Source: Yersinia frederiksenii ATCC 33641
Lineage (GTDB): Bacteria > Pseudomonadota > Gammaproteobacteria > Enterobacterales > Enterobacteriaceae
Direction of reading: 5' to 3'
NCBI RefSeq assembly: GCF_000754805.1
Contig: NZ_KN150731.1
Location: forward strand, 3,769,886-3,833,885
Length of the DNA: 64,000 nt
Shown here: positions 7,213-64,000 of the stretch, one piece after another
Position numbering within the stretch: position 1 is the first letter of the stretch
Layout of the letters: each line of letters opens with the position of its first letter
The notes under the pieces: model-generated
What the model was told of the DNA's origin: nothing
The model's input: only the letters and a program-made list of their open reading frames with translations
The model's database searches: none
Translations under genes and position numbers: made by a program

Positions 7213-7245
7213 AAAAAACCGCAACTTTTAAAGCTGCGGTTTTTT
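7213..7245. terminator. Bidirectional terminator between erpA and the small secreted-protein gene
   Basis: AAAAAACCGCA at 7213 pairs with TGCGGTTTTTT at 7235. The A run and T run flank a GC stem, so it can stop transcripts from both convergent genes. Confidence 0.88.
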
Positions 7246-7256
7246 ACATCTAACTT

Positions 7257-7559: not shown

Positions 7560-7613
7560 AATTATCAACAGCATGTATAACAGCGGTATCCCACTCAGTC
7601 AGCTAAATGGGGA

Positions 7614-7715
7614 TATTCTGCTTTCTTGACGCTACAGCGTTGTTAGCGGCACTCACTCGCCCAAATCACTTACTTGGGTAAATTGATAGGGAGCAAGTTT
7701 GATTTATATATCGGC
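7614..7715. repeat. Degenerate ERIC-like element
   Basis: The segment TTGTTAGCGGCACTCACTCG at 7640 followed by CAAATCACTTACTTGGGTAA matches the central part of better ERIC copies at 27.0 and 38.0 kb in this window. The ends are eroded, so boundaries are approximate. It lies in the 316-bp stretch (7560-7875) between two minus-strand genes. I see nothing else there except AT-rich sequence that may hold the promoter of the small exported gene. Confidence 0.6.
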
Positions 7716-7875
7716 TAATTATTTAAAAACTTGAAGATTTATAGCGCCAATACATTTAAATCGTCAACCGTTGCTCCCCTGTCGTTATAAAAACGAGAGT
7801 TATGGGGTATCAGAGTGATTTATGAATTGTACACAAATTAACCCAATTAGAGAATATCCAATTTTCTGCGGTGCT

Positions 7876-8490
7876 TTAATGCTCTATCTCAAAGGTCGGC
7901 AGCTTTAAACGCCAGCGAATAGCCGCCAGCCTGATACCTAAGGTTATAACCATGCCCAGCATCATTGCTTGCTGTAATGGCATGCCAAAAGTATAAAACG
8001 CCGTCGCATGAACGATGCCACCAATAATACAGGCGGTGGCATAAATTTCAGTACGCAGGATCATTGGGATCTCGCGAGCTAAAACGTCGCGGATAATCCC
8101 ACCACCAACACCAGTGATAACCCCCATACAAATAGCCACCAGCGGGCTGGCTCCGGCAGCAAAGGCTTTATTGACCCCAATGCCCACAAATACCGCCAGA
8201 CCAATGGCATCCAGCACTGGCAGGATCCATTTAGGTGTTCGCCGTGGTTGGCGTACCAGCAAAATCGTTGCCAGGCAGGTTACCATTGCAACAACCAGGT
8301 CTGTAGGATCTTTCACCCAAAATACTGGGCCATTGGCTAAGGCCATGTCGCGTATCGTACCCCCACCGACGGCGGTGACCACCCCCAAAACCAACACACC
8401 AAAAGGGTCCATGCGCAACTTGCCCGCCAGTAACACCCCGGAGATAGCAAATACCGCAGTACCTAAAATATCCAGCCAATAGACCAGCAT
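7876..8490 (-). CDS. yadS: YadS, TRIC-type inner-membrane channel family protein
   Basis: A polytopic membrane protein of 204 residues made of two glycine-rich UPF0126/TRIC repeats, each with three helices. The repeat signature GVVTAVGGGTIRDM recurs as GVITGVGGGIIRDVL. Bacterial TRIC homologues form trimeric cation channels; the E. coli role is not settled. I chose the ATG at 8490 ([14 protein letters not shown]), which matches YadS and overlaps the btuF stop as TAATG, rather than an upstream in-frame start. It is the last gene of the mtnN-btuF-yadS operon. Confidence 0.93.
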   Translation of the reverse strand: MLVYWLDILGTAVFAISGVLLAGKLRMDPFGVLVLGVVTAVGGGTIRDMALANGPVFWVKDPTDLVVAMVTCLATILLVRQPRRTPKWILPVLDAIGLAVFVGIGVNKAFAAGASPLVAICMGVITGVGGGIIRDVLAREIPMILRTEIYATACIIGGIVHATAFYTFGMPLQQAMMLGMVITLGIRLAAIRWRLKLPTFEIEH

Positions 8491-9368
8491 TAATGTGACT
8501 CCGCCACAGTAGATGGGAGGCTGGCCATTTGCTGGCACAGCTGTTTCGCGGCGAGCACAATACGTGGACCGGCGCGATTAAACCAGTCCTCATTAAGTGC
8601 TATCACAGGTACTGCAAGTTGTGGCCGCCAGAAAGTATTGATGTTCTCGGTCTGAGACCCATCGCCACTGACTACGATTACCTGTGGTTTGCGGATTATC
8701 ACTTGTTCACGGCTGACCTGCGGCCAGGGCACCCGACTATGGGCAAAAATATTCTCACCGCCACACAGGGAGATTACTTCACTCTGCAATGTATGAGCTG
8801 AACTGGTAAACAGCGGTTGCGTACCAAATTGCAGGAAAGTCCGTAGTGGTTGACTGCGGGTATTATGGCTACGCAACTCTACAACCTGTAGGCGCAATTG
8901 TTCAGCCGCCTGATGTGCTTGTTCAGGGTGTGGGCTGTATTGCGCCAGTTTATCCAGATCATCTGCAATCTGATTAATATTTACCGGATCAGAATAAAAG
9001 ATCGGAATACCAAAGGACGCCAGTTGCTCCAATGGGCGCTGTGGATTACCACCTCGCCAGGCGAGGATCAAATCTGGCTTTAATGCCAAAATCCGTTCTA
9101 CATTCACCCCTTGCCAAGAAGCCACATGCTCAAGCTTTTTAGCCGCTTCCGGATAGTCTGAGTAAGCACTTACTGCAATGAGTTTGTCTCCTAGCCCAGC
9201 GGCATAGGCCAATTCTGTGGTACTGGGTGATAAACTGATAATCCGCTCTACAGCCATAGCGCGTGACATAAGCGCGCTCAGTATCAATAGGCCAAGCAAC
9301 AATATGATTGCGGCTTGTGGCCGGATTATTGCTGCTCGCGGCGGAGAGAAAAGAGTGAGCCGCACCAT
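8490..9368 (-). CDS. btuF: BtuF, vitamin B12-binding periplasmic protein
   Basis: BtuF captures cobalamin delivered by BtuB and presents it to the BtuCD importer. The protein has 292 residues: an N-terminal signal-anchor-like hydrophobic stretch (about 16-38), then a class III binding fold beginning [20 protein letters not shown]. The [18 protein letters not shown] segment fits cobalamin-type binding proteins. Start and stop overlap mtnN and yadS (TAATG at each junction), so the three are translationally coupled as in E. coli. Confidence 0.95.
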
Positions 9369-50075: not shown

Positions 50076-51737
50076 TTATTTAAAGATGGGGTTACCAGGA
50101 AATAGAGCTTGAGCAGCCTGGCGCAACTGGTTGGCTTGCGCGATATCATTCTGATACTGGGTAATCATGATAAGGCTTTGATAAACATTGGGGTCATTGT
50201 GAAGCTGAATGTATTGCTCTGCCCACATCCTGAACTGCGTCAGGAACGCCGGATCAGGGTTGTGATTAAATTGCAGTAACAGGTTGATATGACGGATATA
50301 TTGATATCTTTCCCATTGGATATAGGGATTTATCAGGTTATCTAGTGGCTGCATATCCACTAAACCACTTCTTTCGGAGAGTGTCAGTACCCGACCAGTT
50401 TTGAAACCTGTCAGCATAAATAGCAGAGTGCAGAACGCCGATAAAACAATAGCGCCATGCAGCCAGCGCCGCCATAAGCTCGCAGTGGATGTTGCTGCAA
50501 CCAGCATGTTTTCCTGAACCATCAGCCGACCCAGTAAAATCAGTACCAACCAGTGACCAGCGGATTGATAAAGAGGCCACTCAGTCATCAGGTGTAAGGC
50601 TATCGGTAAGCTAAGCACCCAAAAAGGGAAAACCTTCTTGGGTTGAACTAACAGTGGCTTGATATATCCGATAGCCAATAGCAACATTCCGATCAGTGCG
50701 ACGATCCCACCCTCAGCCCAACCATAAAGAATTTCATTATGGGGGTGAGAAGGATAAGTATAGTGAGTGGGCACCAGCCCAGCCTGCGCCAAAGTGTGGG
50801 CAAAGGCATATTCGAAACGGCCCATTCCCCAACCTAGCCAAGGGTGCTGCTGTATCATATGCCAAGTATATTCCAGTATTAACCAGCGGTCGGCATTGCT
50901 GCCATCCTTTGATACTAGAAAAGTGCTTTTAATCTCTAGCAGGTAAAAAGCGGCCAGTAAGCTCAGTAGGCTGCAAAGCCACAAGCCGATTAGTTGCCGT
51001 TGACGCCAGTAATAGAGGGAAAGTAAAACTAAGGTAGTCACTCCGCCGAGCCAGCCAATCCGTGATTGCAAAAGCATTAAGACACCAGGGAAAACCAGCA
51101 GTGTGAGAGTGCTTATGCCACGAATGGCCCGACGGCTAGAGATTATAAATAGGTAGGTTGCGATGGCGTAACCTGTTGCCAGATAGCTGGCTAGCACGTT
51201 GGTTTGCTGGAAGATCCCATAAGGGCGCTGTGCGGTATCAAACTCCATCCAGTTATCAGAGGTAAAAACAAACCATTGCAGTAGGGTCAGTATGGTTTGT
51301 CCCCAGGCTGACAGAAGTATCAGCAGCAGCCAGCCCTGCCGCGTATTGTTACTTAGCTTCAGACGAAACAGCCCCAGCAGCAGTATGACTCCCCCCCACA
51401 AACCCAGAATCCGAGGTAACCAAGCGCCTACGTATTGTAATGAGGTGGGCCATAACCCTGGAAGTGTCAGCAATAATGCCCCAAACAGTAACCACCGATC
51501 GCTCGAAGGATTCACGAAGTAGGTCTTTTCACTGTGCGGCCAATAGAGTGCTATCGCCAGGAGTGCCATCATGGCCCAGATGACTATATTGGTGGGAAGA
51601 TGAAGGCCTGAACCACCTCGATTGATTTCATAGTGCATCATGGCAATAAAGGTCATGGCCACAACCACCGTAATAACAAGGTTAATTCTTTGCCCGGATA
51701 AAATAGGTCTTATAAATGGAAATTTCATAATTTTCAT
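50076..51737 (-). CDS. Wzy/WaaL/PglL-superfamily membrane ligase or oligosaccharyltransferase
   Basis: About 553 residues from a likely start at 51737 (other ATGs at 51770 and 51728). There are some 12-13 hydrophobic helices. A large periplasmic loop after the middle contains THYTYPSHPHNEILYGWAEGG, with the histidine expected in O-antigen ligases and O-oligosaccharyltransferases. A soluble C-terminal part follows, ending QAAQALFPGNPIFK, as in PglL/PilO-like proteins with a Wzy_C_2 type end. Function is either glycan ligation to lipid or O-glycosylation of proteins. It is one short gap away from the fimbrial regulator and operon, which makes pilin glycosylation worth considering. Confidence 0.75.
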   Translation of the reverse strand: MKIMKFPFIRPILSGQRINLVITVVVAMTFIAMMHYEINRGGSGLHLPTNIVIWAMMALLAIALYWPHSEKTYFVNPSSDRWLLFGALLLTLPGLWPTSLQYVGAWLPRILGLWGGVILLLGLFRLKLSNNTRQGWLLLILLSAWGQTILTLLQWFVFTSDNWMEFDTAQRPYGIFQQTNVLASYLATGYAIATYLFIISSRRAIRGISTLTLLVFPGVLMLLQSRIGWLGGVTTLVLLSLYYWRQRQLIGLWLCSLLSLLAAFYLLEIKSTFLVSKDGSNADRWLILEYTWHMIQQHPWLGWGMGRFEYAFAHTLAQAGLVPTHYTYPSHPHNEILYGWAEGGIVALIGMLLLAIGYIKPLLVQPKKVFPFWVLSLPIALHLMTEWPLYQSAGHWLVLILLGRLMVQENMLVAATSTASLWRRWLHGAIVLSAFCTLLFMLTGFKTGRVLTLSERSGLVDMQPLDNLINPYIQWERYQYIRHINLLLQFNHNPDPAFLTQFRMWAEQYIQLHNDPNVYQSLIMITQYQNDIAQANQLRQAAQALFPGNPIFK

Positions 51738-51831
51738 GTGGTTAGTATTTTTTCGAACAAAGTAATGCACTATAGTCAGTTAACTAACTATTTTATGTTT
51801 GATTTATAACCACTATTAATAGTGACTATGT

Positions 51832-53019: not shown

Positions 53020-53544
53020 ATGAAACTGAATAAAACTATCTTGGCTGCTGCACTGGTATTAGGTTTTGCTTCTATGGCTAACGCTGCTGATCAAGGCCAA
53101 GGTACTGTAACTTTCAATGGTTCCATCATTGATGCACCTTGCTCAATCGCTGCGGGTTCTGATTCACAGACTGTTGAAATGGGCCAGATCTCTAACGTTG
53201 CTTTGCAGAATGGTGGCAAATCATCAGCTCATGATTTCAACATCAAGCTGGAAAACTGCGACATCTCTACTCTGAAAACTGTAACCACCACTTTCGGCGG
53301 TATGGAATCAGTAGCAGTACCTGGCCTGCTGGGCATCACTGGTGTTGCTGAAGGCGCTGGTATCGCAATCGTTGATGGTTCAGGTTCTGTAATTACTCTG
53401 GGTACTGCAACTGGCGAACAGACTCTGGTTGCTGGTAACAACACCCTGGCATTCTCTGCTTACCTGCAGGGCAGCACTGCTTCTGACGCGATCAAACCAG
53501 GTAGTTTCTCTAGCGTTGCAGACTTCACGCTGGCTTACCAATAA
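53020..53544 (+). CDS. Major fimbrial subunit (type 1 pilin family)
   Basis: This 174-residue precursor has a signal peptide cut after ANA (residue 22). The mature pilin has the donor strand at the N-terminus (GQGTVTFNGSIIDAPCSI), the two conserved cysteines (IDAPCSIA and LENCDIS) and the C-terminal beta-zipper ending ADFTLAYQ with penultimate tyrosine. Codon use is strongly biased to preferred codons, unlike the later pilin genes, which fits the main shaft subunit. It is first in the operon and is followed by a terminator-like hairpin that would raise its transcript level over the rest. Confidence 0.93.
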   Translation: MKLNKTILAAALVLGFASMANAADQGQGTVTFNGSIIDAPCSIAAGSDSQTVEMGQISNVALQNGGKSSAHDFNIKLENCDISTLKTVTTTFGGMESVAVPGLLGITGVAEGAGIAIVDGSGSVITLGTATGEQTLVAGNNTLAFSAYLQGSTASDAIKPGSFSSVADFTLAYQ

Positions 53545-53564
53545 GTATCCCTTTTCTAATTCGG

Positions 53565-53591
53565 CATGCGGATTCGTCCGCATGTCTTTTT
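53565..53591 (+). terminator. Terminator/attenuator after the major pilin gene
   Basis: CATGCGGA-TTCG-TCCGCATG followed by TCTTTTT, 20 bases after the pilin stop. A stable UUCG-loop hairpin with a T run at this place can limit read-through to the usher genes and protect the pilin mRNA. Confidence 0.85.
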
Positions 53592-53630
53592 CTCCTGAGA
53601 AAGATACGTGTTGGGTGAGTTAGGTGATTT

Positions 53631-54176
53631 ATGTCCAAGTCATTTTTTTTGCTAGTGCCTCCTTCCTTACTGATGGCGTCATTACTGAGTTTACCGGTAA
53701 TGGCTGACCCCATGAAAACAGACTGGGGCCGCGTGAGTATGGAAGGAAGTATTATTGATACTGCTTGTGCGATAGATCCAGGAAGTTTGGAACAGACCAT
53801 TGATATGGCGATCTTGCCAATAGGTCAGTTAGTCCAAAACGGTGTGGGAAATGATCATCCATTCGAGATTCGTCTGAATGATTGCACTATTGCCCATGCT
53901 GATTCGAGCAAATCTAACCGGCAGCACTTTACCGTGACTTTTGACGGTACAGCGGACGGTAGTAATTATGCGGTTTACGGTGAAGCCGAAGGGATTGCAA
54001 TGCAAATCATTGATGATAAAGGCAATGCTTCTATTCCTGGCGTCGCGTCACCGGAAATAAATATTATTCCTGCTGATATGAAACTCAATTATGCCCTGCG
54101 TTTAGTGGGCAATGGCAAGATGCTGCGTGCTGGAACTTATCATTCTAGCGTTCGTTTCACATTGGATTATTACTGA
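53631..54176 (+). CDS. Minor fimbrial subunit
   Basis: A 181-residue pilin-family precursor with a signal peptide ending VMA (about 25). Pilin features: GRVSMEGSIIDTACAID near the mature start, the paired cysteine in LNDCTIAH, and a C-terminal SSVRFTLDYY. It resembles the major subunit in layout but is more divergent and lacks its codon bias, suggesting an initiator, anchor or adaptor subunit. It ends 5 bp before the usher gene. Confidence 0.88.
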   Translation: MSKSFFLLVPPSLLMASLLSLPVMADPMKTDWGRVSMEGSIIDTACAIDPGSLEQTIDMAILPIGQLVQNGVGNDHPFEIRLNDCTIAHADSSKSNRQHFTVTFDGTADGSNYAVYGEAEGIAMQIIDDKGNASIPGVASPEINIIPADMKLNYALRLVGNGKMLRAGTYHSSVRFTLDYY

Positions 54177-54181
54177 TTTCA

Positions 54182-56743
54182 ATGAGTAAGGTGACATATC
54201 CCATGCTATCCGCTCGTTCCATCACCACCGGTATTGCCCGTCGTGATTTATTACGCATTTTGATCGTAGTTGCGTTAAGTGGCAATGCTTATGGCGCGTT
54301 AGCCAGTGATGATATTCAGTTTAATACCGATGTATTGGACACCAAGGATCGAGCCAATTTCGATCTGAGCCAATTCTCCCAACGTGGTTTTATCATGCCG
54401 GGGAGTTATAACTTATTGGTTCATATGAATAAGCAAGATATTGGTGAGCAGCCAGTAACATTTTATGCCGCGGAAAAAGACCCTAAAAAAAGTGAGGCAT
54501 GTTTAACACCCAAGTTGGTTGAATTACTGGCACTGAAAGAAGATAGCTTTAAAAAACTAACTTGGTGGCGTGATGGGGAGTGTTTGGATATCAGCAGCTT
54601 GCCTGGTCTGACCGTGCAAGGCGATTTAGCCACTTCATCACTTTATTTGAGTGTGCCGCAAGCTTGGCTGGAATACAGCGAACCTGATTGGGATCCACCT
54701 TCACGTTGGGAGGAGGGTATTTCTGGGGTTCTTTTCGATTACAACTTGTTAGGGCAACTGAACCGCCAACAGACGAACAATACCAGCAACAATAGTTTGA
54801 GCGGTAATGGTACGACTGGAGCTAACTTGGGTGCCTGGCGTTTTCGTGCTGACTGGCAGACGCGTATTGATGAGGTTTCTGGTTCGCCAACTGAACGTCA
54901 ATGGGATTGGAGCCGCTTTTACGCCTACCGTGCGATACCTAATTTGGGTGCCAAGCTGACGTTGGGTGAGGATTTCTTGAACTCCGCTATTTTCGATAGT
55001 TTTCGCTTTAGCGGTGTCAGTTTGGTGACTGATGACAATATGTTGCCGCCGAATTTACGTGGCTATGCACCAGAAATTACCGGTGTGGCTCGGACCAATG
55101 CGCGCGTCGTTGTGAGTCAGCAAGGGCGTGTATTGAGTGAGACTTTGGTTGCCGCAGGTCCTTTCCGTATTCAGAACCTTAACAGTTTTGTGTCCGGGGC
55201 ACTGGATGTTCGTGTAGAAGAACTTGATGGACAAGTTCAACAATTTCAAGTGAATACCGCCAGTATTCCTTATTTGACTCGCCCAGGAATGGTGCGTTAC
55301 AGAGTTGCTGCGGGTAGGCCTTCTGAGATGGGCCATCAGGCTGAAGGGCCGGTATTTGGTACTGGGGAATTTTCTTGGGGGATCAATAACGGCTGGTCAC
55401 TGTTTGGCGGTGGGATCAGTGGTGAAAACGAGTACCAAGCGGCGTCCATGGGTATTGGTCGTGACTTGATGGAGTTTGGTGCGGTGTCGGTGGATATGAC
55501 CCAATCTTGGGCGACCTTACCGGACCAAGGCACCTTGAGTGGTGGCTCTTATCGAGTCAACTATTCAAAAAACTTTCAGGAAACCGGCAGTCAGGTGACG
55601 TTTGCGGGCTATCGCTTCTCTGAACGTAACTTTATGAGTATGAGCCAATATATTGATGCACGTTATCGTGGCGATAACGTGGGTGGCAATAAAGAGATGT
55701 ATACCGTCAGTTTCAACCAGCAGTTCCGTGATCTGGGGTTGAGTGCGTATCTGAACTATAGCCATCAGACGTATTGGGATCGCTCGGCTAATGACCGTTA
55801 TAACTTGTCGTTAGCTCGCTATTTTGATGTAGGTAAATTTAAGAACGTCAGTATTACTTTGTCAGCGTATCGCAACCGTTATAACGAAAATAACGACGAT
55901 GGGATGTATTTATCTATGTCCATGCCGTTTGGCAACAGCGCAACAATCAGTTATAGCGCGACAGTCAATGGCCGCGAAAACAGTCAGCGAGTGGGATATG
56001 CCGACCGTATCGATGCTCACAACAATTACCAGGTCAATACCGGTGTGGCACGTAGCGGCGCGTTAGTGAGTGGTAACTACAACCACATAGGGAATAGTGC
56101 GGATATTAACGCCAATGCCAGTTATCAAGAAGGGCAATATTCTTCTGTGGGTATCGGTATTCAGGGTGGCGCAACAGTCACTGCTGAGGGTGGGGCGCTA
56201 CATCGGGTTAATACGCTCGGTGGTACCCGATTACTGCTTGATACCCAAGGTGTAGCCGGTGTGCCGGTGCAAGGGTATGGCTCAACAATTCGCACCAACC
56301 AATTTGGTAAAGCGGTAGTCGGTGATGTGAACAGTTATTACCGCAACCGAGCCAGTATTGATATTGATAACCTGGCAGATGATGTTGAGGCGAGAGGAAC
56401 AGTCGCGCAGGTTACCCTGACTGAAGGTGCCATCGGTTATCGCCGCTTTAATGTGATTTCCGGTGAAAAAGCGATGGCCATGATACGCATGGCAGACGGT
56501 ACATCGCCGCCATTCGGGGCAACTGTATTAAATGAAAATCAGCAAGAAACCGGCATTGTTAACGACGACGGTTCTACTTATCTCAGTGGGATCAAAGCCG
56601 GTGAAACCATGTCAGTACAGTGGAATGGGCAGGCGCAATGCAGCGTCACTCTACCGAAGATGCTGTCTCCGGCAGTGCTGGCAAATTTACTGTTGCCTTG
56701 CCAGCCGATAGCGGTTGGGGATAAGCCCCCGGTGTCACAGTAG
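54182..56743 (+). CDS. Fimbrial outer-membrane usher
   Basis: The 853-residue usher forms the outer-membrane pore that takes chaperone-subunit complexes and assembles the fibre. After a signal region (about 1-39, ending GALAS) it has the N-terminal domain (IQFNTDVLDTKDRANFDLSQF), cysteines in SEACLTPK and DGECLDI, the translocation barrel with plug (APEITGVARTNARVVVSQQG), and C-terminal domains with the cysteine pair QCSVTLPK and LLPCQPI. Length and motifs are full for the FimD/PapC family. Confidence 0.95.
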   Translation: MSKVTYPMLSARSITTGIARRDLLRILIVVALSGNAYGALASDDIQFNTDVLDTKDRANFDLSQFSQRGFIMPGSYNLLVHMNKQDIGEQPVTFYAAEKDPKKSEACLTPKLVELLALKEDSFKKLTWWRDGECLDISSLPGLTVQGDLATSSLYLSVPQAWLEYSEPDWDPPSRWEEGISGVLFDYNLLGQLNRQQTNNTSNNSLSGNGTTGANLGAWRFRADWQTRIDEVSGSPTERQWDWSRFYAYRAIPNLGAKLTLGEDFLNSAIFDSFRFSGVSLVTDDNMLPPNLRGYAPEITGVARTNARVVVSQQGRVLSETLVAAGPFRIQNLNSFVSGALDVRVEELDGQVQQFQVNTASIPYLTRPGMVRYRVAAGRPSEMGHQAEGPVFGTGEFSWGINNGWSLFGGGISGENEYQAASMGIGRDLMEFGAVSVDMTQSWATLPDQGTLSGGSYRVNYSKNFQETGSQVTFAGYRFSERNFMSMSQYIDARYRGDNVGGNKEMYTVSFNQQFRDLGLSAYLNYSHQTYWDRSANDRYNLSLARYFDVGKFKNVSITLSAYRNRYNENNDDGMYLSMSMPFGNSATISYSATVNGRENSQRVGYADRIDAHNNYQVNTGVARSGALVSGNYNHIGNSADINANASYQEGQYSSVGIGIQGGATVTAEGGALHRVNTLGGTRLLLDTQGVAGVPVQGYGSTIRTNQFGKAVVGDVNSYYRNRASIDIDNLADDVEARGTVAQVTLTEGAIGYRRFNVISGEKAMAMIRMADGTSPPFGATVLNENQQETGIVNDDGSTYLSGIKAGETMSVQWNGQAQCSVTLPKMLSPAVLANLLLPCQPIAVGDKPPVSQ

Positions 56744-56844
56744 AACCGTTGAGTAATGAACCCTGCGGATAGCCGCTCGTCCACATAAAAGAAGACGATT
56801 GGCACCATCTGGTTCTGACATGAATAATTGAAGGAAATAAGGTA

Positions 56845-57591
56845 ATGAAATTGAATAACAAATTGCGTATCACCACGATTCTGGTGACGGCACTTATCAC
56901 TCAGCAAGCAACAGCTGCGATCGCACTGGACAGAACTCGGGCGATCATTAATGGCAGTGATAAATCGATCAGCCTGAACATCAGCAACCAGAATAAGCAA
57001 TTGCCTTATCTGGCACAGGGCTGGATTGAGGATGAGCAGGGTAACAAAATCAATACTCCACTGACGGTGGTTCCACCGGTTCAGCGTGTTGAGCCAGGTG
57101 CTCTCAGCCAGTTAAAAGTACAGACTTTGCCTGCAGTGAGCCAGTTGGCGCAAGACCGGGAAACGCTGTTCTATTTTAACCTGCGCGAAATTCCGCCGCG
57201 TTCAGACAAGCCCAATACTTTGCAGATTGCTCTGCAAACGCGCATTAAACTTTTTTATCGTCCGACCAGCATCGTGCCCCAAAAGGCCGACATGTCGACA
57301 CCATGGCAGGAAAAGTTACAGCTGACTCGTCAGGGCGACCGTTATCAAGTTAATAACCCGACGCCGTACTACATCACTCTGGTAGATGCCAGTGATAGTA
57401 AAGCTGGGAAAACTGCAGCGGGTTTCAAACCGTTGATGATCGCACCAAAAGCCCAGGGCATGTTGGATGTTAGCGCCGCTGCATTAGGGAGCAAACCTGT
57501 ACTGACTTATGTCAATGATTTCGGCGGTCGTCCAAAGCTGATCTTTAGCTGTGCGGGCAGTACGTGTTCCGTGGTTGAAAGCATCAAATAA
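56845..57591 (+). CDS. Periplasmic fimbrial chaperone
   Basis: A 248-residue FimC/PapD-type chaperone that folds pilins by donor-strand complementation. The signal peptide ends ATAA (about 25). The mature protein starts IALDRTRAIING, with the active-site arginine, and carries the family signature YFNLREIPPRSDK followed by LQTRIKLFYRPTSI, with the active-site lysine. The order usher-chaperone is reversed from E. coli fim but is common in other fimbrial clusters. Confidence 0.95.
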   Translation: MKLNNKLRITTILVTALITQQATAAIALDRTRAIINGSDKSISLNISNQNKQLPYLAQGWIEDEQGNKINTPLTVVPPVQRVEPGALSQLKVQTLPAVSQLAQDRETLFYFNLREIPPRSDKPNTLQIALQTRIKLFYRPTSIVPQKADMSTPWQEKLQLTRQGDRYQVNNPTPYYITLVDASDSKAGKTAAGFKPLMIAPKAQGMLDVSAAALGSKPVLTYVNDFGGRPKLIFSCAGSTCSVVESIK

Positions 57592-57633
57592 CCACTGCTT
57601 AAGTATGGTCATAATAGCAATAAGGAATATGGG

Positions 57634-58176
57634 ATGGCTGTTGTTTGTAAGGGATTAGTTACCCGGCTGACCCCGATGGTCATGAAGGCCATGATTGGGA
57701 TGACGGCCATCGTAGGAACAATGACATTATTTAGCAGCCCTGTTTGGGCGCTAAATAAGACTGCAACGGTTAATGTTTCGGTCAGTATTATTGCTGCACC
57801 GCCCTGTGTGATTAATAGCAACAATACCATCAACGTTAATTTTGGTGATGACCTGCTGACGTCAAACATTGATGGTGTTCAGTATATGAAGCCAGTGAGC
57901 TATTCCCTGAACTGTACTGCGGCGGCAAAGAATGCACTGAAAATGAGCATCAAGGGTAATGGCGCGAATTTCGATACCACAGTGTTGAAAACCAGTAATT
58001 CGAGCCTGGGCATAAAATTGATACAGGGTGGGCAAGTATTGCCGCTTAACAGCACATTTAATTTTACTTACCCAGCTGTCCCTGTCTTACAGGCAATACC
58101 GGTTAAGCAAACAAATGCGACGTTAAGTACGGGATATTTTTCCGGCACAGCAACCTTGGTTGTGGAGTACCAATAA
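57634..58176 (+). CDS. Minor fimbrial subunit, first of three tandem paralogues
   Basis: A 180-residue pilin-like precursor with a long N-terminus and signal region ending PVWA (about 44). It shares NTINVNFGDDLLTSNIDGVQY and KTSNSSLGIKLIQGG with the next gene and more distantly with the third. Cysteines are in APPCVINS and SLNCTAA. This DFGDD...IDGxxY type resembles MrpE/YfcP-like minor pilins. Its stop overlaps the next start as TAATG. Confidence 0.85.
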   Translation: MAVVCKGLVTRLTPMVMKAMIGMTAIVGTMTLFSSPVWALNKTATVNVSVSIIAAPPCVINSNNTINVNFGDDLLTSNIDGVQYMKPVSYSLNCTAAAKNALKMSIKGNGANFDTTVLKTSNSSLGIKLIQGGQVLPLNSTFNFTYPAVPVLQAIPVKQTNATLSTGYFSGTATLVVEYQ

Positions 58177-58664
58177 TGAAAATGAATTCACTCACATCGT
58201 GTTGTTCCGTTGCTGTGGTTCTGGCTCTCAGTAGTACGTTAGCGTATGCGGATAACATGCAGTTCTCGGGCACGTTAATTAACCCACCACCTTGTGTGAT
58301 TAACAACACTGGCACCATTATCGTTGATTTTGGTGATGATATCCTGACTTCGCATGTTGACGGTGCTCAGTATATAAAACCGGTGACTTATACATTGAAT
58401 TGTACGAGTGCGGTGTCCAATTCGCTAAAAATGACGATTAAGGGTGATGGTGCGGGCTTTGATACTACGGTCTTGAAAACGAGTAATTCGAACCTGGGCA
58501 TCAAGTTAGTACGAAATAATCAGCCATTAACACTGAATTCTACATTTACGTTCACCTACCCGACGATACCGGTATTACAGGCAGTACCGGTTAAGCAAGC
58601 AGGGGCGACGTTGAGTACAGGATATTTTTACGGTACAGCGACCATGGTTGTGGAGTATCAGTAA
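58176..58664 (+). CDS. Minor fimbrial subunit, second of three tandem paralogues
   Basis: A 162-residue precursor with a signal peptide ending AYA (about 25). It is close to the preceding subunit (DFGDDILTSHVDGAQYIKP, KTSNSNLGIKLVRNN, and a C-terminus ending GTATMVVEYQ). Cysteines are in NPPPCVINN and LNCTSA. It overlaps both neighbours through TAATG junctions, so the three are translated together. Confidence 0.87.
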   Translation: MKMNSLTSCCSVAVVLALSSTLAYADNMQFSGTLINPPPCVINNTGTIIVDFGDDILTSHVDGAQYIKPVTYTLNCTSAVSNSLKMTIKGDGAGFDTTVLKTSNSNLGIKLVRNNQPLTLNSTFTFTYPTIPVLQAVPVKQAGATLSTGYFYGTATMVVEYQ

Positions 58665-59158
58665 TGAAAAATATCTCACTGATATCATGCTGTTCTGTTG
58701 CTGTTGTTTTTGCATTGAGTAGTTCGTTAGCGGATGCCGATGACATGCTGTTCTCCGGCTCGTTAATTAATCCCCCACCTTGCGTAATTAGCGGTGGTGA
58801 CACCATAGATGTGTTTTTTGGGGAAAATCTGGGGGTGAAAAAGATTGATGGCACCAATTATACCCAGAATGTGCCTTACAGCATTACGTGTGATCCTGTT
58901 TCTGGCGGCTTGGAATTAGGTCTGACGATTGTTAGCGCGTCGGTTACCACATTTGATTCCTCCGCAATACAAACCAATGTCCAAGACTTGGGTATTCGTT
59001 TAATGAGGAATGGTACCCCTTTTGTACTTAATACGCGTGTTGCTTATGACAAAAATAATCCGCCAGTTCTGACCGCTGTACCTGTTCAGGCGGCGGGGGC
59101 AACATTAAGTGAAGGGGCCTTTGAGGCTACCGCTACATTATTAGTGGATTACCAATAG
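58664..59158 (+). CDS. Minor fimbrial subunit, third of three tandem paralogues
   Basis: A 164-residue precursor. The signal peptide (ISCCSVAVVFALSSSLADA) and the first mature residues are almost identical to those of the second paralogue, then the sequence diverges: FFGENLGVKKIDGTNYTQN and a distinct C-terminal half ending FEATATLLVDYQ. This looks like a duplication followed by divergence or domain exchange. Cysteines are in NPPPCVISG and SITCDPV. Confidence 0.87.
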   Translation: MKNISLISCCSVAVVFALSSSLADADDMLFSGSLINPPPCVISGGDTIDVFFGENLGVKKIDGTNYTQNVPYSITCDPVSGGLELGLTIVSASVTTFDSSAIQTNVQDLGIRLMRNGTPFVLNTRVAYDKNNPPVLTAVPVQAAGATLSEGAFEATATLLVDYQ

Positions 59159-59164
59159 GATCAA

Positions 59165-59713
59165 ATGATGACTAATTTAAATCTGCTGATGCGCCACGGG
59201 CGAATTATTTTAAGTGTTCTGGTTCTGAATGCTTTTGGCGTTATATCGGTATCAGCGGCGGATAATATGCGTTTTCATGGCGCATTAGTGGCTGAGCCGT
59301 GCACAATTCGCCCTGGTGATGAGGCTATTAGTCTGAACTTTGGCACGGTAGTCGATAAATATCTTTATTCGAATCAGCGTACCTTAGGTAAACAGTTTCA
59401 AATTCATCTGGTTGATTGCGATATCAGCTTAGGCACTACTGCCAATATTATGTTCACGGGCAATGACAGCGTTAAGTTACCGGGATTATTAGCGGTTGAT
59501 GGTAATGATGTGGGGATTGCTATTGGTCTTGAAACAATGGCAGGAAAAGCGTTGCCACTGAATCAATCCAGTGACGATATTCCACTGGATACGGGTTCTA
59601 ATATTATTACATTGAAAGCTTATGTCAGAGGTGAACCAGACGCTATAGCTCAACGCACAATTAAACGCGGTGAGTTCAATGCAGTCGCAACATTTAATCT
59701 GCAATATTATTAA
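59165..59713 (+). CDS. Minor fimbrial subunit (adaptor-like)
   Basis: A 182-residue pilin-family precursor with a signal peptide ending SVSAA (about 31). It is of the classic FimA/F-like type rather than the DFGDD type: MRFHGALVAEPCTIRPGDEAI, paired cysteine in LVDCDISLG, and a C-terminal EFNAVATFNLQYY. It lies between the tandem minor pilins and the tip adhesin, so it could link the adhesin to the fibre. Confidence 0.87.
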   Translation: MMTNLNLLMRHGRIILSVLVLNAFGVISVSAADNMRFHGALVAEPCTIRPGDEAISLNFGTVVDKYLYSNQRTLGKQFQIHLVDCDISLGTTANIMFTGNDSVKLPGLLAVDGNDVGIAIGLETMAGKALPLNQSSDDIPLDTGSNIITLKAYVRGEPDAIAQRTIKRGEFNAVATFNLQYY

Positions 59714-59753
59714 TGGGTTCCCCCACTAATTTTATTTCAATAAGAATATTTCA

Positions 59754-60638
59754 ATGCTGAAATTTATTATCAACAGCTTAAATGCCGATATGCGGATAGA
59801 GACAATGGAACTTAAACGAATGACACAGCCTAATATACGCTTAAGTAGTCAATATTTCTGGCTAATTGCTTGCGTGCTGTTTTTATTTCCACTTTATAGC
59901 CAGGCCAGTGCCTGGGTGTCGACCCAAACGCGGGTAGGGCAACAATACCAAGGGACATATTCTTGGCCGAGCGAAGAAATGCAGGGGGTACTTTGTACTG
60001 CTGCAACTTGTTCTGTGGCGATATGTCACTACTCGTCGGCGCCCGGTGCTGAAATATGTGGTAACCCGGAGAACGCATTGACACGAGTTTTTGTTTCTCA
60101 AGGGGCGACTGCCGAGGTTATGAGAGCGGCCTTTGTTGCTAAAAATGGGGTGTCGGGAAGTTGGAGCACGAATACTACTCTGCCGTTGTATGCCGCCGGT
60201 AGTTGTTTTGGTGTGATGTATTGGCAAGGCTCGACTGGAAATAATACCACTGGTAGGGTTATTCCCGGCTCTTATTGTGGCGCGGTCCCGCCGACTCCAG
60301 AAACCTGTGAGGTAACCGGTGATGTGTATATTAATTATGGTTCGCTTAGTCAACAAGCCGTTGATGGTGCAATAAAGAGTGAACAATTAATTATCAACTG
60401 TACTGTCAGAACATCGGTGAAGTTGACCCTTGTGGGGGGGAAAAGTATTCCTCTTGGACAAAATGGCAATCTCACATCGACATTAAAAGTGTCAGGGCAA
60501 GATTTATCCGGTGGTGTGACAGTCACAGGGAATGTGGGGAATACCCCGTTCTTGATTGAATCGACATTGCACGCACCCGCATTACCTGATGCTGGCTCGT
60601 TTACTGGTAGTGGAGTAGTGATTATGTCATACCAGTAA
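59754..60638 (+). CDS. Two-domain fimbrial tip adhesin
   Basis: Up to 294 residues; several in-frame ATGs (59754, 59790, 59805, 59820) precede the signal peptide that ends YSQASA, and 59805 or 59820 may be the true start. The N-terminal domain (about residues 50-180) has six cysteines in LCTAATCSVAICHYS, ICGN, SCFG and YCGA and is unlike the pilins, as expected for a receptor-binding lectin domain. The C-terminal pilin domain (from ETCEVTGDVYINYG, Cys pair with LIINCTV) ends GVVIMSYQ. The receptor is unknown. Confidence 0.82.
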   Translation: MLKFIINSLNADMRIETMELKRMTQPNIRLSSQYFWLIACVLFLFPLYSQASAWVSTQTRVGQQYQGTYSWPSEEMQGVLCTAATCSVAICHYSSAPGAEICGNPENALTRVFVSQGATAEVMRAAFVAKNGVSGSWSTNTTLPLYAAGSCFGVMYWQGSTGNNTTGRVIPGSYCGAVPPTPETCEVTGDVYINYGSLSQQAVDGAIKSEQLIINCTVRTSVKLTLVGGKSIPLGQNGNLTSTLKVSGQDLSGGVTVTGNVGNTPFLIESTLHAPALPDAGSFTGSGVVIMSYQ

Positions 60639-60968: not shown

Positions 60969-61157
60969 ATGAAAAAAATGAACATGGCTGAAGCAAATAC
61001 AATCGTTGGCGGTACTGGTGTAACTTGTAAAGATACTTATGAGTGGCTGTCAGGTAGTACTACTTTGACTTGCCAGGCTGTTACTACTTGTACTGACAAG
61101 CACGGTACAGTCACTAGCCGTACTGCTACAGCGACCAACATTGCTAACTGCAAATAA
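60969..61157 (+). CDS. Double-glycine-leader, four-cysteine secreted peptide (candidate microcin/bacteriocin precursor)
   Basis: A 62-residue precursor. Residues 1-15 (MKKMNMAEANTIVGG) form a short leader ending in GG, the cleavage signal read by C39-peptidase ABC exporters. The predicted 47-residue core is rich in Thr and Ser and has four cysteines (20, 35, 41, 61), enough for two disulfides. A good AAGGA site lies nine bases upstream. Downstream genes encode a DsbA-like protein and a C39 exporter, which fit maturation and export of such a peptide. It resembles uncharacterised small GG-leader proteins of Enterobacterales (possibly the DUF4762 group, from memory). Killing activity is not shown by the sequence; a signalling or toxin role is possible. 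Confidence 0.75.
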   Translation: MKKMNMAEANTIVGGTGVTCKDTYEWLSGSTTLTCQAVTTCTDKHGTVTSRTATATNIANCK

Positions 61158-61206
61158 GATATAAATTAAGTATTCGTTAATTTTTATCGATATTTAATAG
61201 TATCCC

Positions 61207-61239
61207 AGGCAAGTGCGGGAGGAATTTCTGTACTTGCCT
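61207..61239 (+). terminator. Hairpin between the peptide gene and its export genes
   Basis: AGGCAAGT pairs with ACTTGCCT around a 17-base loop and is followed by TATTTATTTCTT. It could end most transcripts after the peptide gene and allow limited read-through to the export genes. The rest of the 228-bp gap has no obvious open frame. Confidence 0.65.
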
Positions 61240-61385
61240 TATTTATTTCTTCAAATGTGTCATCGATGCTTAAATTCAAGAATTTTCGCATTAATTGAAT
61301 GTTAGAAAGATTATTTCGTGGGCATAAATGTCATTTGACTCTATTTTATGTCTTACCTGAACTCTGATTGTGAATAAAATTAACT

Positions 61386-62069
61386 ATGTCTACCAAATAC
61401 AATATGTTTAGGAGTAAGGGATTTTTTATAGGCTATACACTGTTAGTTATCCTTATTTCTTCATTGATAACAACGGCCTATTTCCACTATTTCGTTCTTA
61501 ATCAGGATGAACAGGAAACCCTATTCGCTGTCAGCAACAGTGAAGTTGAAAACAGCCCAATCAAAGACGATAAAACTATTATCGAGATCTTCTCTTATGG
61601 CTGCCATTACTGCGCCATCAATGAAGAGAATGTGACCCAATTAGAAAACCGCATGCCAGAAGGGACGCGTTTTGTTCGCCTGCATATCAGCAGTGATAAA
61701 ACCACCGGCTTGGGGCGTTTTGCACCTATTTTCGCGACTTTATCCGTCATGGGTATTGAATCGCAGCATCGCCAAAGTGCCTACAAAGCGGTACTTGAAG
61801 ACAACATTGATCTGAGTGATAACAGCCAACTCGAAACCTGGCTAAAAGCCAATGGCATTGATGTTGCCCAATATCAGCAAGTAAGCCAGTCAGCTGAAGT
61901 TAAAGAATTGATCGCGTATATGACGGCAGTCACCGCGCATTACAAAATTGACGCTACTCCGACCTTTATTGTCGGTAAAAAATGGATAGCGCTACAGGAT
62001 CGTCAATTCCCAGAGTTCTCAGATCATCTCTTGTCATTACTCGAGCACGATAAGGCGCTGGAGAAATAA
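61386..62069 (+). CDS. Membrane-anchored DsbA-like thiol oxidoreductase
   Basis: A 227-residue protein with one N-terminal membrane helix (about 13-37) and a periplasmic thioredoxin-fold domain with a DsbA-type active site CHYC (73-76, in FSYGCHYCAINEE) and the cis-proline loop TPTFIVGKKW (Pro near 192). The helical insert between them fits the DsbA family. It differs from general DsbA by being anchored and lying in a peptide-export locus, so it probably forms or isomerises the disulfides of the four-cysteine peptide. Its stop overlaps the next start (TAATG). Confidence 0.85.
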   Translation: MSTKYNMFRSKGFFIGYTLLVILISSLITTAYFHYFVLNQDEQETLFAVSNSEVENSPIKDDKTIIEIFSYGCHYCAINEENVTQLENRMPEGTRFVRLHISSDKTTGLGRFAPIFATLSVMGIESQHRQSAYKAVLEDNIDLSDNSQLETWLKANGIDVAQYQQVSQSAEVKELIAYMTAVTAHYKIDATPTFIVGKKWIALQDRQFPEFSDHLLSLLEHDKALEK

Positions 62070-63025
62070 TGAGACTGTTAGCCGTATGGGGTTATTTCGC
62101 CTGGAGAAACCAGCTAGATAAGCTGGCTTTCAGTGGGCGAGCATTGACTCACTTGCAAGCCAAACTGGCTGTCGGGTTATTACGGCATGGCGATTATCGC
62201 ATTTTACTGATGCTCGGTGCTTTGCGCCGGGCTTTCGGTTTGTCGTCACGGCGTCAGAAGAACCTGGCTCGGGTGGCTGCGGCTAATAGTCAGTGTTTGT
62301 TGACCGGGCAGAAAAGCCCATCGGCACGCAGTTTTATCCGTACCGCGCAACGTCGTCAGGTATTAGAGTTGGCAGCAACCTTTGGGCAGAATCGGCGGAT
62401 TTTAGCTCAATTGGCGGCTTGTACTCAGCAGTTGGATAGCCAAGTCAGTGCGCTGCACGAAGCGGGTTCTCCAGTGATTCTGGCACCTCTGCATATGGTC
62501 TCAGATGTGCTCGCCGGTATGGTTGGTGCGGGCACTTATCCAGGTTTGGCGACGGTGGTGGTTTCAGCCAGCGCAGAAGCATATGAAGAGCAAGCTCGGC
62601 AAATGGGGGGAGTGAATATCTCCTATTGCTCTATTCATGCGGATAGCCGTGCTATTGCCGGCAACCTGATGGACGCCATTATGGAAGCGGCAGAGCATAA
62701 GCGAAATATTATGATTTTTCCGGATATTACACCGGATTACACCGTCAATAACCAGACGACCGAAACCGCCAAAATTCCCTGCCAATTGTTCGGTCGCCCT
62801 GCCAATTTACACAGTGGAATTATCCGCCTGGCCAGAGCACTTTCAGCGCAAGTGGTTTTTTATTATCTGTATTACGACAAAGGAATAAAAATCCATGTTT
62901 ATCCAGCGCTTAATGCACGGGAAGTTAAAAATAAACTACCCGAATTGATTGAAACATCAATGACGAAGCATCCACAAGATTGGCTGCTATGGCACTCACA
63001 TTCGTTGTTTTTTATTAATGAATAA
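62069..63025 (+). CDS. LpxL/HtrB-like acyltransferase-family protein
   Basis: A 318-residue protein whose C-terminal half follows the lysophospholipid acyltransferase pattern of LpxL/LpxM: a His/Asp motif (LAPLHMVSDVLAG, His 142, Asp 146), then FPDITPDYT, IPCQLFGRPANLHSGIIRLARAL and VVFYYLYYDKGIKIHVYP. The catalytic motif has three residues between His and Asp where the family usually has four, so activity is uncertain. It is coupled to the DsbA-like gene and precedes the exporter by 25 bp. It may acylate the peptide or a lipid, or act in immunity; none of these is shown. Confidence 0.65.
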   Translation: MRLLAVWGYFAWRNQLDKLAFSGRALTHLQAKLAVGLLRHGDYRILLMLGALRRAFGLSSRRQKNLARVAAANSQCLLTGQKSPSARSFIRTAQRRQVLELAATFGQNRRILAQLAACTQQLDSQVSALHEAGSPVILAPLHMVSDVLAGMVGAGTYPGLATVVVSASAEAYEEQARQMGGVNISYCSIHADSRAIAGNLMDAIMEAAEHKRNIMIFPDITPDYTVNNQTTETAKIPCQLFGRPANLHSGIIRLARALSAQVVFYYLYYDKGIKIHVYPALNAREVKNKLPELIETSMTKHPQDWLLWHSHSLFFINE

Positions 63026-63050
63026 TGTTACCTACAAAGAATAGTAGAAA

Positions 63051-64000
63051 ATGGAAAAGATAATCCCAACGCTAGTTTTTCAAAGCGAAACCAATGAATG
63101 TGGTTTGGCCTGTATTGCGATGCTGGCACAGACGCAAGGCATTGATGCACCACTGGAAAGCTTGCGTGAGCGTTATCCTGCCTCAGGGCATGGCACATCA
63201 CTGGCCAGGCTTTGTACTATTTTGTCTGAACTGGCCATACCGGCTTATCCGGTGGTGTTTGAACATCAGGAGCTGTCAGCGTTACCGCTGCCGGCCATTC
63301 TGCATTATGGTGCCAACCATTATGTGTTGCTCGCCTACCGCCAAGGTAACTATGTCTGCGTAATGAACCCGGCTATTGGCCAGCAGTTGCTGCCAATGGA
63401 TGCCTTAAAAGCAGAAATCAGTGGTTACGCGTTGGTACTGGACCCTGAAACTCCGGCAGATCCAGACGCTGTGAAGAAAATTCAACAAAGTAAGCGGCTC
63501 AGTGCACTCGACTGCATGAGCTTAAAAGAGACGGCGAGTATCCGTGGAATCTACTGGCTGATGACGCTGGCATTTTTGATCTCTCTGACTCTGTTTATTA
63601 TGCCGACCATGGTCAGCAGCGCTATTAATGATGTGTTTTCCTCTGCGGGCGATAAAGATTTTCCTTATTTCTATTTTCTATTGGCCTTTGTGGTCTCGAC
63701 GTCATTAGCTTTTGCTGTGCGATATATCACCGAGCGTTATATCAAACACTTTGTGGTGCTTAACAGTGTGGCCGGTTTCTCCCGTTTACTCAGTCACTCG
63801 CTTAACTTCTTTGATAAGCGAGCGCCGGGTGACATCTTCAGCCGGTTCTCCAACTGGCAGATGGCTGCAACACAGAAAATCGAACTGGATAATGGCCTGC
63901 GTACCGACTGGATCATCGGCGCAATTGCACTGGCAGTGATGTGCTATATGAGCCCACTGTTGGCAATGGTGTCGGCTATCGGTGTGATGTTGATGGGGCT
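63051..64000 (+). CDS. Peptidase-C39 ABC exporter of double-glycine peptides (truncated by window end)
   Basis: The frame is open from the ATG at 63051 to the window edge (316 codons seen). The N-terminal C39 domain shows the oxyanion glutamine and catalytic cysteine in FQSETNECGLACIAM (Gln 11, Cys 17) and the catalytic histidine in ANHYVLLAY (His 90). The third position, normally Asp in a DPAxG motif, is Asn 106 (VMNPAIG). Transmembrane helices begin near residue 168 (IYWLMTLAFLISLTLFIMP). The ATPase domain would lie beyond the window. It should cleave the GG leader and export the four-cysteine peptide. Confidence 0.9.
   Translation, partial: MEKIIPTLVFQSETNECGLACIAMLAQTQGIDAPLESLRERYPASGHGTSLARLCTILSELAIPAYPVVFEHQELSALPLPAILHYGANHYVLLAYRQGNYVCVMNPAIGQQLLPMDALKAEISGYALVLDPETPADPDAVKKIQQSKRLSALDCMSLKETASIRGIYWLMTLAFLISLTLFIMPTMVSSAINDVFSSAGDKDFPYFYFLLAFVVSTSLAFAVRYITERYIKHFVVLNSVAGFSRLLSHSLNFFDKRAPGDIFSRFSNWQMAATQKIELDNGLRTDWIIGAIALAVMCYMSPLLAMVSAIGVMLMG

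What the first reader, a model, noticed from the sequence alone, without database searches (positions are those of the whole stretch)
60969..64000. Candidate undescribed secreted disulfide peptide system
Four genes on one strand form a coherent unit: a 62-residue GG-leader peptide with four cysteines, an anchored DsbA-like oxidoreductase, an LpxL-like acyltransferase-family protein and a C39-peptidase ABC exporter. Known class II microcin loci have the peptide and exporter but I do not know a characterised one with both a dedicated DsbA homologue and an acyltransferase-like protein. The leader is only 15 residues and lacks the usual longer pattern before GG.
Basis: partly seen in the sequence, partly recalled or inferred. 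Interest (0 to 1): 0.85.

Follow-up and report, generated by a model that had tools for sequence, protein, structure and literature searches.

The report
Fimbria-linked lipidated peptide secretion system
Next to a fimbria operon this bacterium carries an 11-gene set, shared with many gut and environmental relatives, that appears to make, fatty-acylate, fold and export a small peptide; I found no published description of it.

Summary
The four genes are real; past 64000 the unit continues to 11 same-strand genes: GG-leader peptide (Pfam DUF4762), anchored DsbA-like protein, LpxL/PatA-fold acyltransferase, C39-peptidase ABC exporter, MacA, MacB, NodT-type channel, ketoacyl synthase, hotdog dehydratase, acyl carrier protein, ketoreductase. 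Sixty named loci in 22 Enterobacterales genera, found with the acyltransferase, all hold the two exporters, channel, synthase and ACP in the same order. In 149 sampled genomes the peptide profile hits the same 16 as the acyltransferase, plus one weak hit with stops. All 88 distinct DUF4762-like peptides keep Lys-x-Gly at a predicted hairpin turn. DsbA accompanies adjacent peptides with four or more cysteines (55 of 55). Fimbrial genes lie beside 37 of 60 loci; no immunity gene was found.

Best reading: an acyl-ACP-fed LpxL-type enzyme fatty-acylates the peptide, the C39 exporter cleaves it and moves it to the periplasm, DsbA folds it, and MacAB plus channel put it outside: the dispersin/Aat principle built from other parts. 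Acylation and function are inferred. The microcin idea remains a rival.

The parts
60969..61157 (+). Precursor peptide, 62 aa: 15-residue leader ending GG, 47-residue core with Cys 20, 35, 41, 61 and the turn D43-K44-H45-G46 (DUF4762)
   Evidence: (PF15959 E 5.5e-11); AlphaFold2 mean pLDDT 74, strands 19-29, 32-42, 48-55
61207..61239 (+). Terminator-like hairpin between peptide and dsbA-like gene; may let the peptide be made in excess of the machinery (inference)
   Evidence: 1 found, mean 0.4 in shuffles; 113-nt stretch, z -4.95
61386..62069 (+). DsbA-like thiol oxidoreductase with N-terminal hydrophobic anchor, CHYC and cis-Pro
   Evidence: PF01323 E 4.6e-13; both Cys and the Pro in 55 of 55 relatives
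62069..63025 (+). LpxL/PatA-fold acyltransferase with invariant H142-x3-D146
   Evidence: PF03279 E 5.4e-5; model pLDDT 80; Foldseek: PatA E 1.7e-9, LpxM E 2.7e-7; H and D in 59 of 59 aligned, 1 of 60 not aligned there
63051..64000 (+). First part of the C39-peptidase ABC exporter (716 aa, L002 4052-6202 = extended position 63051-65201). Beyond the window on the same strand, extended positions (L002 + 58999): MacA 65198-66394, MacB 66384-68360, channel 68357-69754, ketoacyl synthase 69751-71001, hotdog dehydratase 70998-71828, ACP 71843-72091, ketoreductase 72096-72830
   Evidence: peptidase Cys17 and His90 60 of 60, Asn106 in the third place 60 of 60
53020..60638 (+). Associated chaperone-usher fimbrial operon (subunits, usher 54182-56743, chaperone 56845-57591, MrpH-type tip 59754-60638)
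   Evidence: a relative of its usher lies upstream in 34 of 60 named cassette loci

Best explanation
The unit makes, fatty-acylates, folds and exports a small peptide. (1) Shown: the precursor has a GG leader and is encoded with a C39 exporter whose peptidase Cys/His are conserved. (2) Inferred: the LpxL/PatA-type enzyme takes an acyl chain from the private carrier protein, built by the private ketoacyl synthase (with the unit's or the host's reductase and dehydratase), and puts it on the precursor on the cytoplasmic side before or during export; the invariant Lys at the tip of the core hairpin is the likeliest acceptor. (3) Inferred: the C39 exporter removes the leader and moves the peptide to the periplasm, where the DsbA homologue makes the disulfides. 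(4) Inferred by analogy with MacAB-TolC and Aat: MacA, MacB and the NodT-type channel carry the lipopeptide out. (5) Inferred from linkage: it acts at the cell surface together with fimbriae, as dispersin is regulated with AAF fimbriae, rather than primarily as a bacteriocin. I put about 0.6 on the peptide being the acylated product and about 0.4 on the fimbria-related surface role.
For: Exporters, channel, synthase and ACP with the acyltransferase, same order, in 60 of 60 named loci (the acyltransferase was the query). In the 17 loci of 16 sampled genomes, acyltransferase, C39-ABC, MacA and MacB 17 of 17, all 11 genes 14 of 17 (L039 was cut by the stretch I fetched, L037 lacks DsbA, L043 lacks ketoreductase). 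Peptide and acyltransferase co-occur: the same 16 of 149 genomes plus one weak hit with stops; in 295 genomes of the order acyltransferase 7, peptide 5, all within the 7, and the other two have different GG peptides before the acyltransferase. Of 8 searched records or genomes whose cassette lacks an adjacent peptide, 7 have one elsewhere. Lys-x-Gly: 71 of 71 distinct precursors, 11 of 11 orphans, 6 of 6 further new ones, while the residue before it varies. Catalytic residues conserved wherever aligned. DsbA: 55 of 55 loci with an adjacent peptide of at least 4 Cys have it, 2 of 2 with a 2-Cys peptide lack it, as do pE41 (2 Cys), L145 (2 Cys) and L144 (no Cys). The minimal relatives L144 and L145 keep GG peptide, acyltransferase, C39 exporter and MacAB without DsbA or synthase genes in the stretches read, tying the acyltransferase to the peptide. 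Fimbrial genes beside 37 of 60 loci. Analogy: CexE/dispersin must be acylated for export by the MacAB-like Aat system (PMC7943197: introduction, distribution section and first part of discussion read), and aap, aat and AAF fimbriae share a regulator (PMC7478709, passages).
Against: No acylation was observed. The profile seeds were chosen with a DKxG filter, so the 71 of 71 is partly guarded; the ungated check and the orphans are the real support. In the two most distant relatives the Lys is not kept (one L145 peptide has NKFG, its paralogue NHFG; L144 has no KxG), and their acyltransferases match no Pfam family. D-K-x-G also suits a plain beta-turn. The acyltransferase has H-x3-D, not H-x4-D/E. 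Five Serratia loci lack dehydratase and ketoreductase. DsbA rule has exceptions: the Chimaeribacter cassette L107 has open frames for acyltransferase and exporter, 4-Cys peptides elsewhere and no DsbA hit in the stretches searched; pSalMiami keeps only a DsbA remnant with a 4-Cys peptide. The C39 exporter frame is interrupted or short in 6 of 60 loci (assembly errors not excluded). 23 of 60 loci showed no hit to the window's fimbrial proteins within the flanks held, and the linkage is partly shared descent.
Confidence: 0.58

Rival explanations
1. A class II microcin-like bacteriocin system: the exported peptide kills relatives; disulfides, and perhaps an acyl chain that helps it hold the target's outer membrane, support that.
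For: GG leader, C39 exporter, four or more Cys in most. The peptide core evolves fastest in the unit (dN/dS 0.08-0.48 against 0.00-0.18 for the other genes, ten Yersinia comparisons, one macA value undefined). Several divergent orphan peptides in some genomes. Plasmid carriage. Lipidation helps class IV CdiA recognise target LPS (PMC8510554, passages).
Against: Around 11 orphans and three cassettes no shared small membrane-protein gene was seen; the only shared neighbours were the cassettes' own dsbA and LuxR-type genes and a 31-residue stretch between L127 and L129. [quoted passage not shown] Second exporter, fatty-acid genes and fimbria linkage are not known microcin features (recalled).
Confidence: 0.3
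2. The acyltransferase and fatty-acid genes modify a membrane lipid (lipid A or phospholipid), for self-protection or as a partner of the peptide; the peptide itself is only cleaved and oxidised.
For: Closest folds PatA and LpxM acylate lipids (their substrates recalled); Pfam family is lipid A acyltransferase. Two E. coli plasmid cassettes are followed by polysaccharide deacetylase, glycosyltransferase and phosphoethanolamine transferase genes.
Against: In 149 genomes acyltransferase and peptide were never apart save one weak hit; the minimal relatives keep acyltransferase, GG peptide and exporters. The 60 loci were searched only for the 11 genes, so other lipid A genes nearby are not excluded.
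Confidence: 0.2
3. Two systems side by side: MacAB and channel export a small fatty-acid or polyketide product of the synthase module, independent of the peptide and its C39 exporter.
For: MacAB pumps export small molecules, and a synthase-dehydratase-ACP-ketoreductase set without enoyl reductase resembles aryl-polyene modules (both recalled).
Against: One gene order mixes both sets in 60 of 60 loci, and MacAB stays with GG peptide and acyltransferase where the synthase module is absent from the stretches read.
Confidence: 0.08

Closest known systems
Aat (lipoprotein secretion) system with dispersin/CexE of EAEC and ETEC
   Same: Small secreted protein, own acyltransferase, MacA/MacB-like pump plus outer-membrane channel, shared regulation with fimbriae, substrate gene often apart from the machine (PMC7943197, PMC7478709)
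   Different: Aat substrates use Sec and signal peptidase; AatD is Lnt-like and acylates an N-terminal Gly; the five Aat proteins include no C39 exporter, DsbA, ACP or synthase. Here: GG leader, LpxL/PatA-fold enzyme, dedicated ACP and synthase
Class II microcins
   Same: 15-18 residue GG leader, C39 ABC exporter, disulfides (PMC13101503 sections 5 and 12; PMC7680869 passages)
   Different: No immunity gene found, MacAB-type second exporter, dedicated DsbA, LpxL-type enzyme, fatty-acid module, fimbria linkage
Lipidated RiPPs: microvionin, goadvionins, lipoavitides, selidamides, nostolysamides
   Same: Ribosomal peptide carrying a fatty acyl group; Lys and Orn side-chain acylation known; one cited title names non-modular fatty acid synthases (PMC13060382 passages)
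   Different: Those are lanthipeptides acylated by GNAT enzymes; here an LpxL/PatA-fold enzyme, disulfides and envelope export in Enterobacterales
Toxin-activating acyltransferases (HlyC, CdiC)
   Same: Acyl-ACP-dependent acylation of internal Lys of an exported protein (PMC8510554 passages)
   Different: Different enzyme family and large protein substrates

Membership tests
Pfam DUF4762 (PF15959) | Score over the family's gathering cut-off (27 bits) | tested here: met
   42.6 bits; the model found 4 of 295 order genomes
Class II microcin | GG leader encoded with a C39 exporter | tested here: met
Class II microcin | Cognate immunity gene adjacent to the peptide gene | tested here: inconclusive
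   None seen at 11 orphans and three cassettes, by similarity and a simple hydrophobicity scale only; immunity genes are easily missed
Class II microcin | Antibacterial activity | not testable with these tools
   Needs an assay
Aat lipoprotein secretion system | Lnt-like acyltransferase AatD | tested here: not met
   The acyltransferase is LpxL/PatA fold; no Lnt-like family among the ten proteins scanned and the ketoreductase
Aat lipoprotein secretion system | Sec-exported substrate with invariant N-terminal Gly | tested here: not met
   GG leader; the residue after GG is Thr in 46 of 71, Cys in 7, others less
LpxL-family acyltransferase | LPLAT fold | tested here: met
   PatA E 1.7e-9, TM 0.54/0.67; LpxM E 2.7e-7
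LpxL-family acyltransferase | H-x4-D/E catalytic motif (recalled) | tested here: not met
   H142-x3-D146 instead, invariant in A1 and A3 and 59 of 59 aligned loci
Lipidated RiPP | Acyl group on the core peptide | not testable with these tools
   Needs mass spectrometry

The most novel reading that the evidence does not exclude
A separate kind of envelope system: the first in which an LpxL/PatA-fold enzyme with its own ACP and ketoacyl synthase acylates a ribosomal GG-leader peptide on a hairpin-tip lysine, followed by two-step export (C39 exporter, then MacAB and channel) and DsbA folding, giving a surface lipopeptide that works with fimbriae: an independent invention of the dispersin/Aat principle, present in over 20 genera.
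Probability: 0.35. Interest if true: 0.9.

Novelty: new variant of a known kind. Interest (0 to 1): 0.8.

Why it matters
If right, it gives a new enzyme type for lipidating ribosomal peptides (LpxL/PatA fold with a dedicated acyl supply), a second route by which Gram-negative bacteria place lipopeptides outside the cell, and a function for DUF4762 and for a gene set carried by Yersinia, Serratia, Klebsiella, Enterobacter and Providencia species and by E. coli and Salmonella plasmids. The fimbria link makes a general question testable: do fimbriated enterics need a lipidated surface peptide, as EAEC pairs dispersin with AAF?

Tried and rejected
Rejected or unproductive: (a) acylation of a fixed N-terminal Gly or Cys as in Aat or classical lipoproteins: the residue after GG varies. 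(b) Known fold for the peptide: Foldseek found nothing with E below 0.001, PDB sequence search nothing up to E 5. (c) PDB sequence relatives of the acyltransferase: one hit at E 0.48, not credible. (d) Phage origin: the one hit in the phage collection is a Salmonella houtenae contig with chromosomal flanks. (e) Spread beyond the order: none but the window's own genome in 369 sampled class genomes. (f) Literature: no paper with DUF4762 and none describing the set. (g) A hairpin between peptide and dsbA was scored loosely in 55 loci (39 hits, many long imperfect folds), too loose to count. (h) I had taken the Chimaeribacter acyltransferase for broken from one translated frame; that was the wrong frame, and one search shows an open 318-aa frame in L107, so this is withdrawn. 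The second Chimaeribacter record L026 does have the exporter in two frames.

Integrity check over the 60 loci (open frame at least 80% of the window protein's length): acyltransferase, MacA, synthase and ACP 60 of 60, channel 59, MacB 58, C39 exporter 54; DsbA 54 of 55, dehydratase 55 of 55, ketoreductase 54 of 55; one Serratia rubidaea locus (L066) accounts for six of the shortfalls.

Against my reading: Lys not kept in the two most distant relatives; five Serratia loci without dehydratase and ketoreductase; L043 without ketoreductase; one Enterobacter peptide lacks the last Cys (L093); two DsbA exceptions (Chimaeribacter, pSalMiami). Promoter-like sites upstream of the peptide were fewer than in shuffles (2 against 5.2).
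Full report
WHAT IS THERE. The window is G000:C1:3769886-3833885 of a 4.94 Mb genome. The genus is Yersinia: G040, given as same genus, has a contig of 415,418 bases with the match, as has Yersinia alsatica (L051); the species was not determined. The four reported genes are confirmed. Reading on (L002) shows one run of 11 + strand genes: peptide, DsbA-like, LpxL-like, C39-ABC (716 aa), MacA-like, MacB-like, NodT-type channel, FabF-like ketoacyl synthase, MaoC-type hotdog protein, ACP, ketoreductase. From the dsbA-like gene on, neighbours overlap or lie at most about 25 bases apart. MacA and MacB score below the cut-offs of the named MacA and MacB models, so they are relatives, not MacAB itself. 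After the unit a gene runs on the other strand. Upstream on the same strand is a chaperone-usher operon with an MrpH-type tip. The own genome has four further DSBA-family places and five further ketoacyl-synthase places, the latter at most 37% identical, so the cassette copies are extra.

HOW WIDE. The acyltransferase was found in 16 of 149 sampled genomes of the family (17 loci), 7 of 295 of the order and, besides the window's own genome, in none of 369 sampled across the class. A scan of one genome per species gave 60 named loci in 22 named genera (it starts from two short conserved patterns, so it undercounts): ten Yersinia species, Serratia, Rahnella, Klebsiella, Enterobacter, Providencia, Hafnia, Pantoea, Erwinia, Citrobacter, Trabulsiella, Cedecea and others. 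In these 60, C39-ABC, MacA, MacB, channel, synthase and ACP are found in 60; peptide by tblastn in 57; DsbA, dehydratase and ketoreductase in 55 each; order is the same throughout. Frames are mostly open: acyltransferase, MacA, synthase and ACP 60 of 60, C39 exporter 54 of 60. Plasmids: 15 of 72,556 PLSDB records (10 E. coli, some being the same plasmid twice, 2 Salmonella, Chimaeribacter, Serratia, one weak Caballeronia); 9 of 5,426 complete E. coli genomes by near identity, all on plasmids. In Salmonella houtenae the set lies between hflC and yjeT. Order differs on Serratia pE41.

THE PEPTIDES. A profile search of small ORFs in the loci gave 83 peptides, 71 distinct. Leader length came out as 15 in 57 of 71; 12 of the rest are 12 by my choice of an inner Met. 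Core Cys: 2 in 3, 4 in 38, 5 in 25, 6 in 5. In the core, one Cys and the Lys and Gly of [DN]-K-x-G are invariant (71 of 71); Asp 70 of 71; last Cys 70 of 71. The seeds had been filtered for DKxG, so two controls matter. An ungated search for GG ORFs upstream of the acyltransferase gave 61 ORFs, 56 with KxG; the 5 others look like chance ORFs (this filter itself missed L055 and L108). And 11 orphan peptides away from the cassette, found by profile A2 in four genomes, all keep K-x-G although the residue before is D in 7, N in 2, G in 1, T in 1. One search adds six new ones, all with KxG (its other rows repeat known ones). Total 88 of 88 distinct. The predicted fold is a three-stranded sheet with D43-G46 as the turn between strands 2 and 3 (pLDDT 74, moderate). 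A turn explains Gly and Asp; it does not by itself demand Lys, which is why I take Lys as the likely acceptor (inference).

LINK OF PEPTIDE AND MACHINE. Profile A2 hit 17 of 149 family genomes: the 16 with the acyltransferase and one weak partial hit with two stops. In the order, profile A4 hit 5 of 295, all among the 7 acyltransferase genomes. The other two were opened: G248 has two GG peptides of 98 and 96 aa, the first directly before acyltransferase, C39-ABC, MacA, MacB and channel; G152 has a 49-aa GG peptide before acyltransferase, C39-ABC, MacA and MacB, no channel seen; neither stretch gave hits for DsbA or the synthase genes, and both acyltransferases keep H-x3-D although no Pfam family matches them. 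So the constant core is GG peptide, acyltransferase, C39 exporter and MacAB; synthase/ACP and DsbA look like additions. Of the 11 records or genomes searched, 9 hold a peptide; the two without are the Chimaeribacter plasmid record (the related genome G795 has three) and pE41, whose divergent peptide is seen directly. DsbA: of 60 loci, 55 with adjacent peptides of at least 4 Cys all have it, 2 with 2-Cys peptides lack it, 3 without an adjacent peptide lack it, one of these at a contig edge. pE41, L145 and L144 (2, 2 and 0 Cys) lack it. Exceptions: Chimaeribacter L107 and pSalMiami, with 4-Cys peptides elsewhere and no or a broken DsbA. Against Y. rohdei the peptide and dsbA-like gene have dS 0.06 and 0.10 while the other nine genes have 0.70-0.94, and against Y. 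thracica 0.34 and 0.20 against 0.68-1.55, so this stretch seems to be exchanged as a block.

ENZYMES. Residues conserved wherever aligned: C39 Cys and His 60 of 60 with Asn in the third place 60 of 60, synthase C-H-H 60, ACP Ser 60, ketoreductase S-Y-K 55, dehydratase D-x4-H 55, DsbA C-C-cisPro 55, acyltransferase His142 and Asp146 59 of 59. The acyltransferase model (pLDDT 80) matches PatA and LpxM. Such enzymes work on the cytoplasmic side with acyl-CoA or acyl-ACP (recalled), so cytoplasmic acylation with the private ACP as donor is the simplest reading. Five Serratia loci have synthase and ACP but no dehydratase or ketoreductase (two read), so those steps could come from the host.

FIMBRIAE. 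Hits to the window's fimbrial proteins are within the held flanks of 37 of 60 named loci, 34 with an usher upstream. The own genome has 8 usher places in 4.94 Mb, so chance neighbourhood is a few percent (my arithmetic). The window's usher is 83-96% identical to those of ten Yersinia loci and 43-46% to 23 others, while the other ushers of the own genome reach at most 33%: one fimbrial type travels with the cassette, so the 37 are not independent. Other arrangements: a recombinase and fimbrial subunit downstream in Serratia and a related pair in L034; a different fimbrial type about 12 kb upstream on an E. coli plasmid; a fimbrial gene about 1 kb from the peptide on pSalMiami. LuxR-type regulators lie between fimbriae and peptide in L085 and L095, the L095 match being below the family cut-off; HD-domain and ToxR-like genes follow the unit in L038 and have relatives in several others.

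COMPARISON. The nearest working principle is Aat: acylated CexE/dispersin moved out by a MacAB-like pump and regulated with fimbriae (PMC7943197: introduction, distribution section and first part of the discussion read; PMC7478709: passages). Class II microcins share leader and exporter; an immunity gene was not found. Lipidated RiPPs share the idea, but the enzymes in the passages seen are GNATs (PMC13060382). Six searches found no description; subscription papers and supplements could not be searched.

SHOWN AND INFERRED. Shown by computation: gene content, order, spread, co-occurrence, conservation, predicted folds. Inferred: acylation of the peptide, its site, the order of steps, two-step export, the fimbria-related role.

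Noticed in passing
window 50079-51770 (-): A 564-aa Wzy_C/PglL-type O-oligosaccharyltransferase-like protein lies on the far side of the fimbrial operon; Providencia locus L088 has a 564-aa protein of the same kind between fimbriae and peptide (7214-8908). It might glycosylate fimbriae or the Thr-rich peptide.
   Followed up: partly
L075, L077, L080, L081, L084: Five Serratia cassettes end with synthase and ACP, without dehydratase and ketoreductase; in the two read (L084, L077) a 182-aa integrase-like ORF and a fimbrial subunit follow.
   Followed up: partly
L053 and L056 against window 60969-62069: Peptide and dsbA-like gene show much lower synonymous divergence than the rest of the unit against Y. 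thracica and Y. rohdei, which suggests exchange of this block by recombination.
   Followed up: partly
L123-L131: Eleven orphan peptides of the family stand elsewhere in four genomes that carry the cassette, five of them in G070, so one machine may serve several substrates.
   Followed up: yes
L144, L145: Two order relatives carry a minimal version with unrelated GG peptides (one Cys-free) and no DsbA or fatty-acid genes in the stretches read.
   Followed up: yes
L024, L025, L027, L046-L050: Plasmids of E. coli and Salmonella carry the unit, several beside insertion sequences, with the peptide gene displaced elsewhere on the plasmid in those where one was found.
   Followed up: partly
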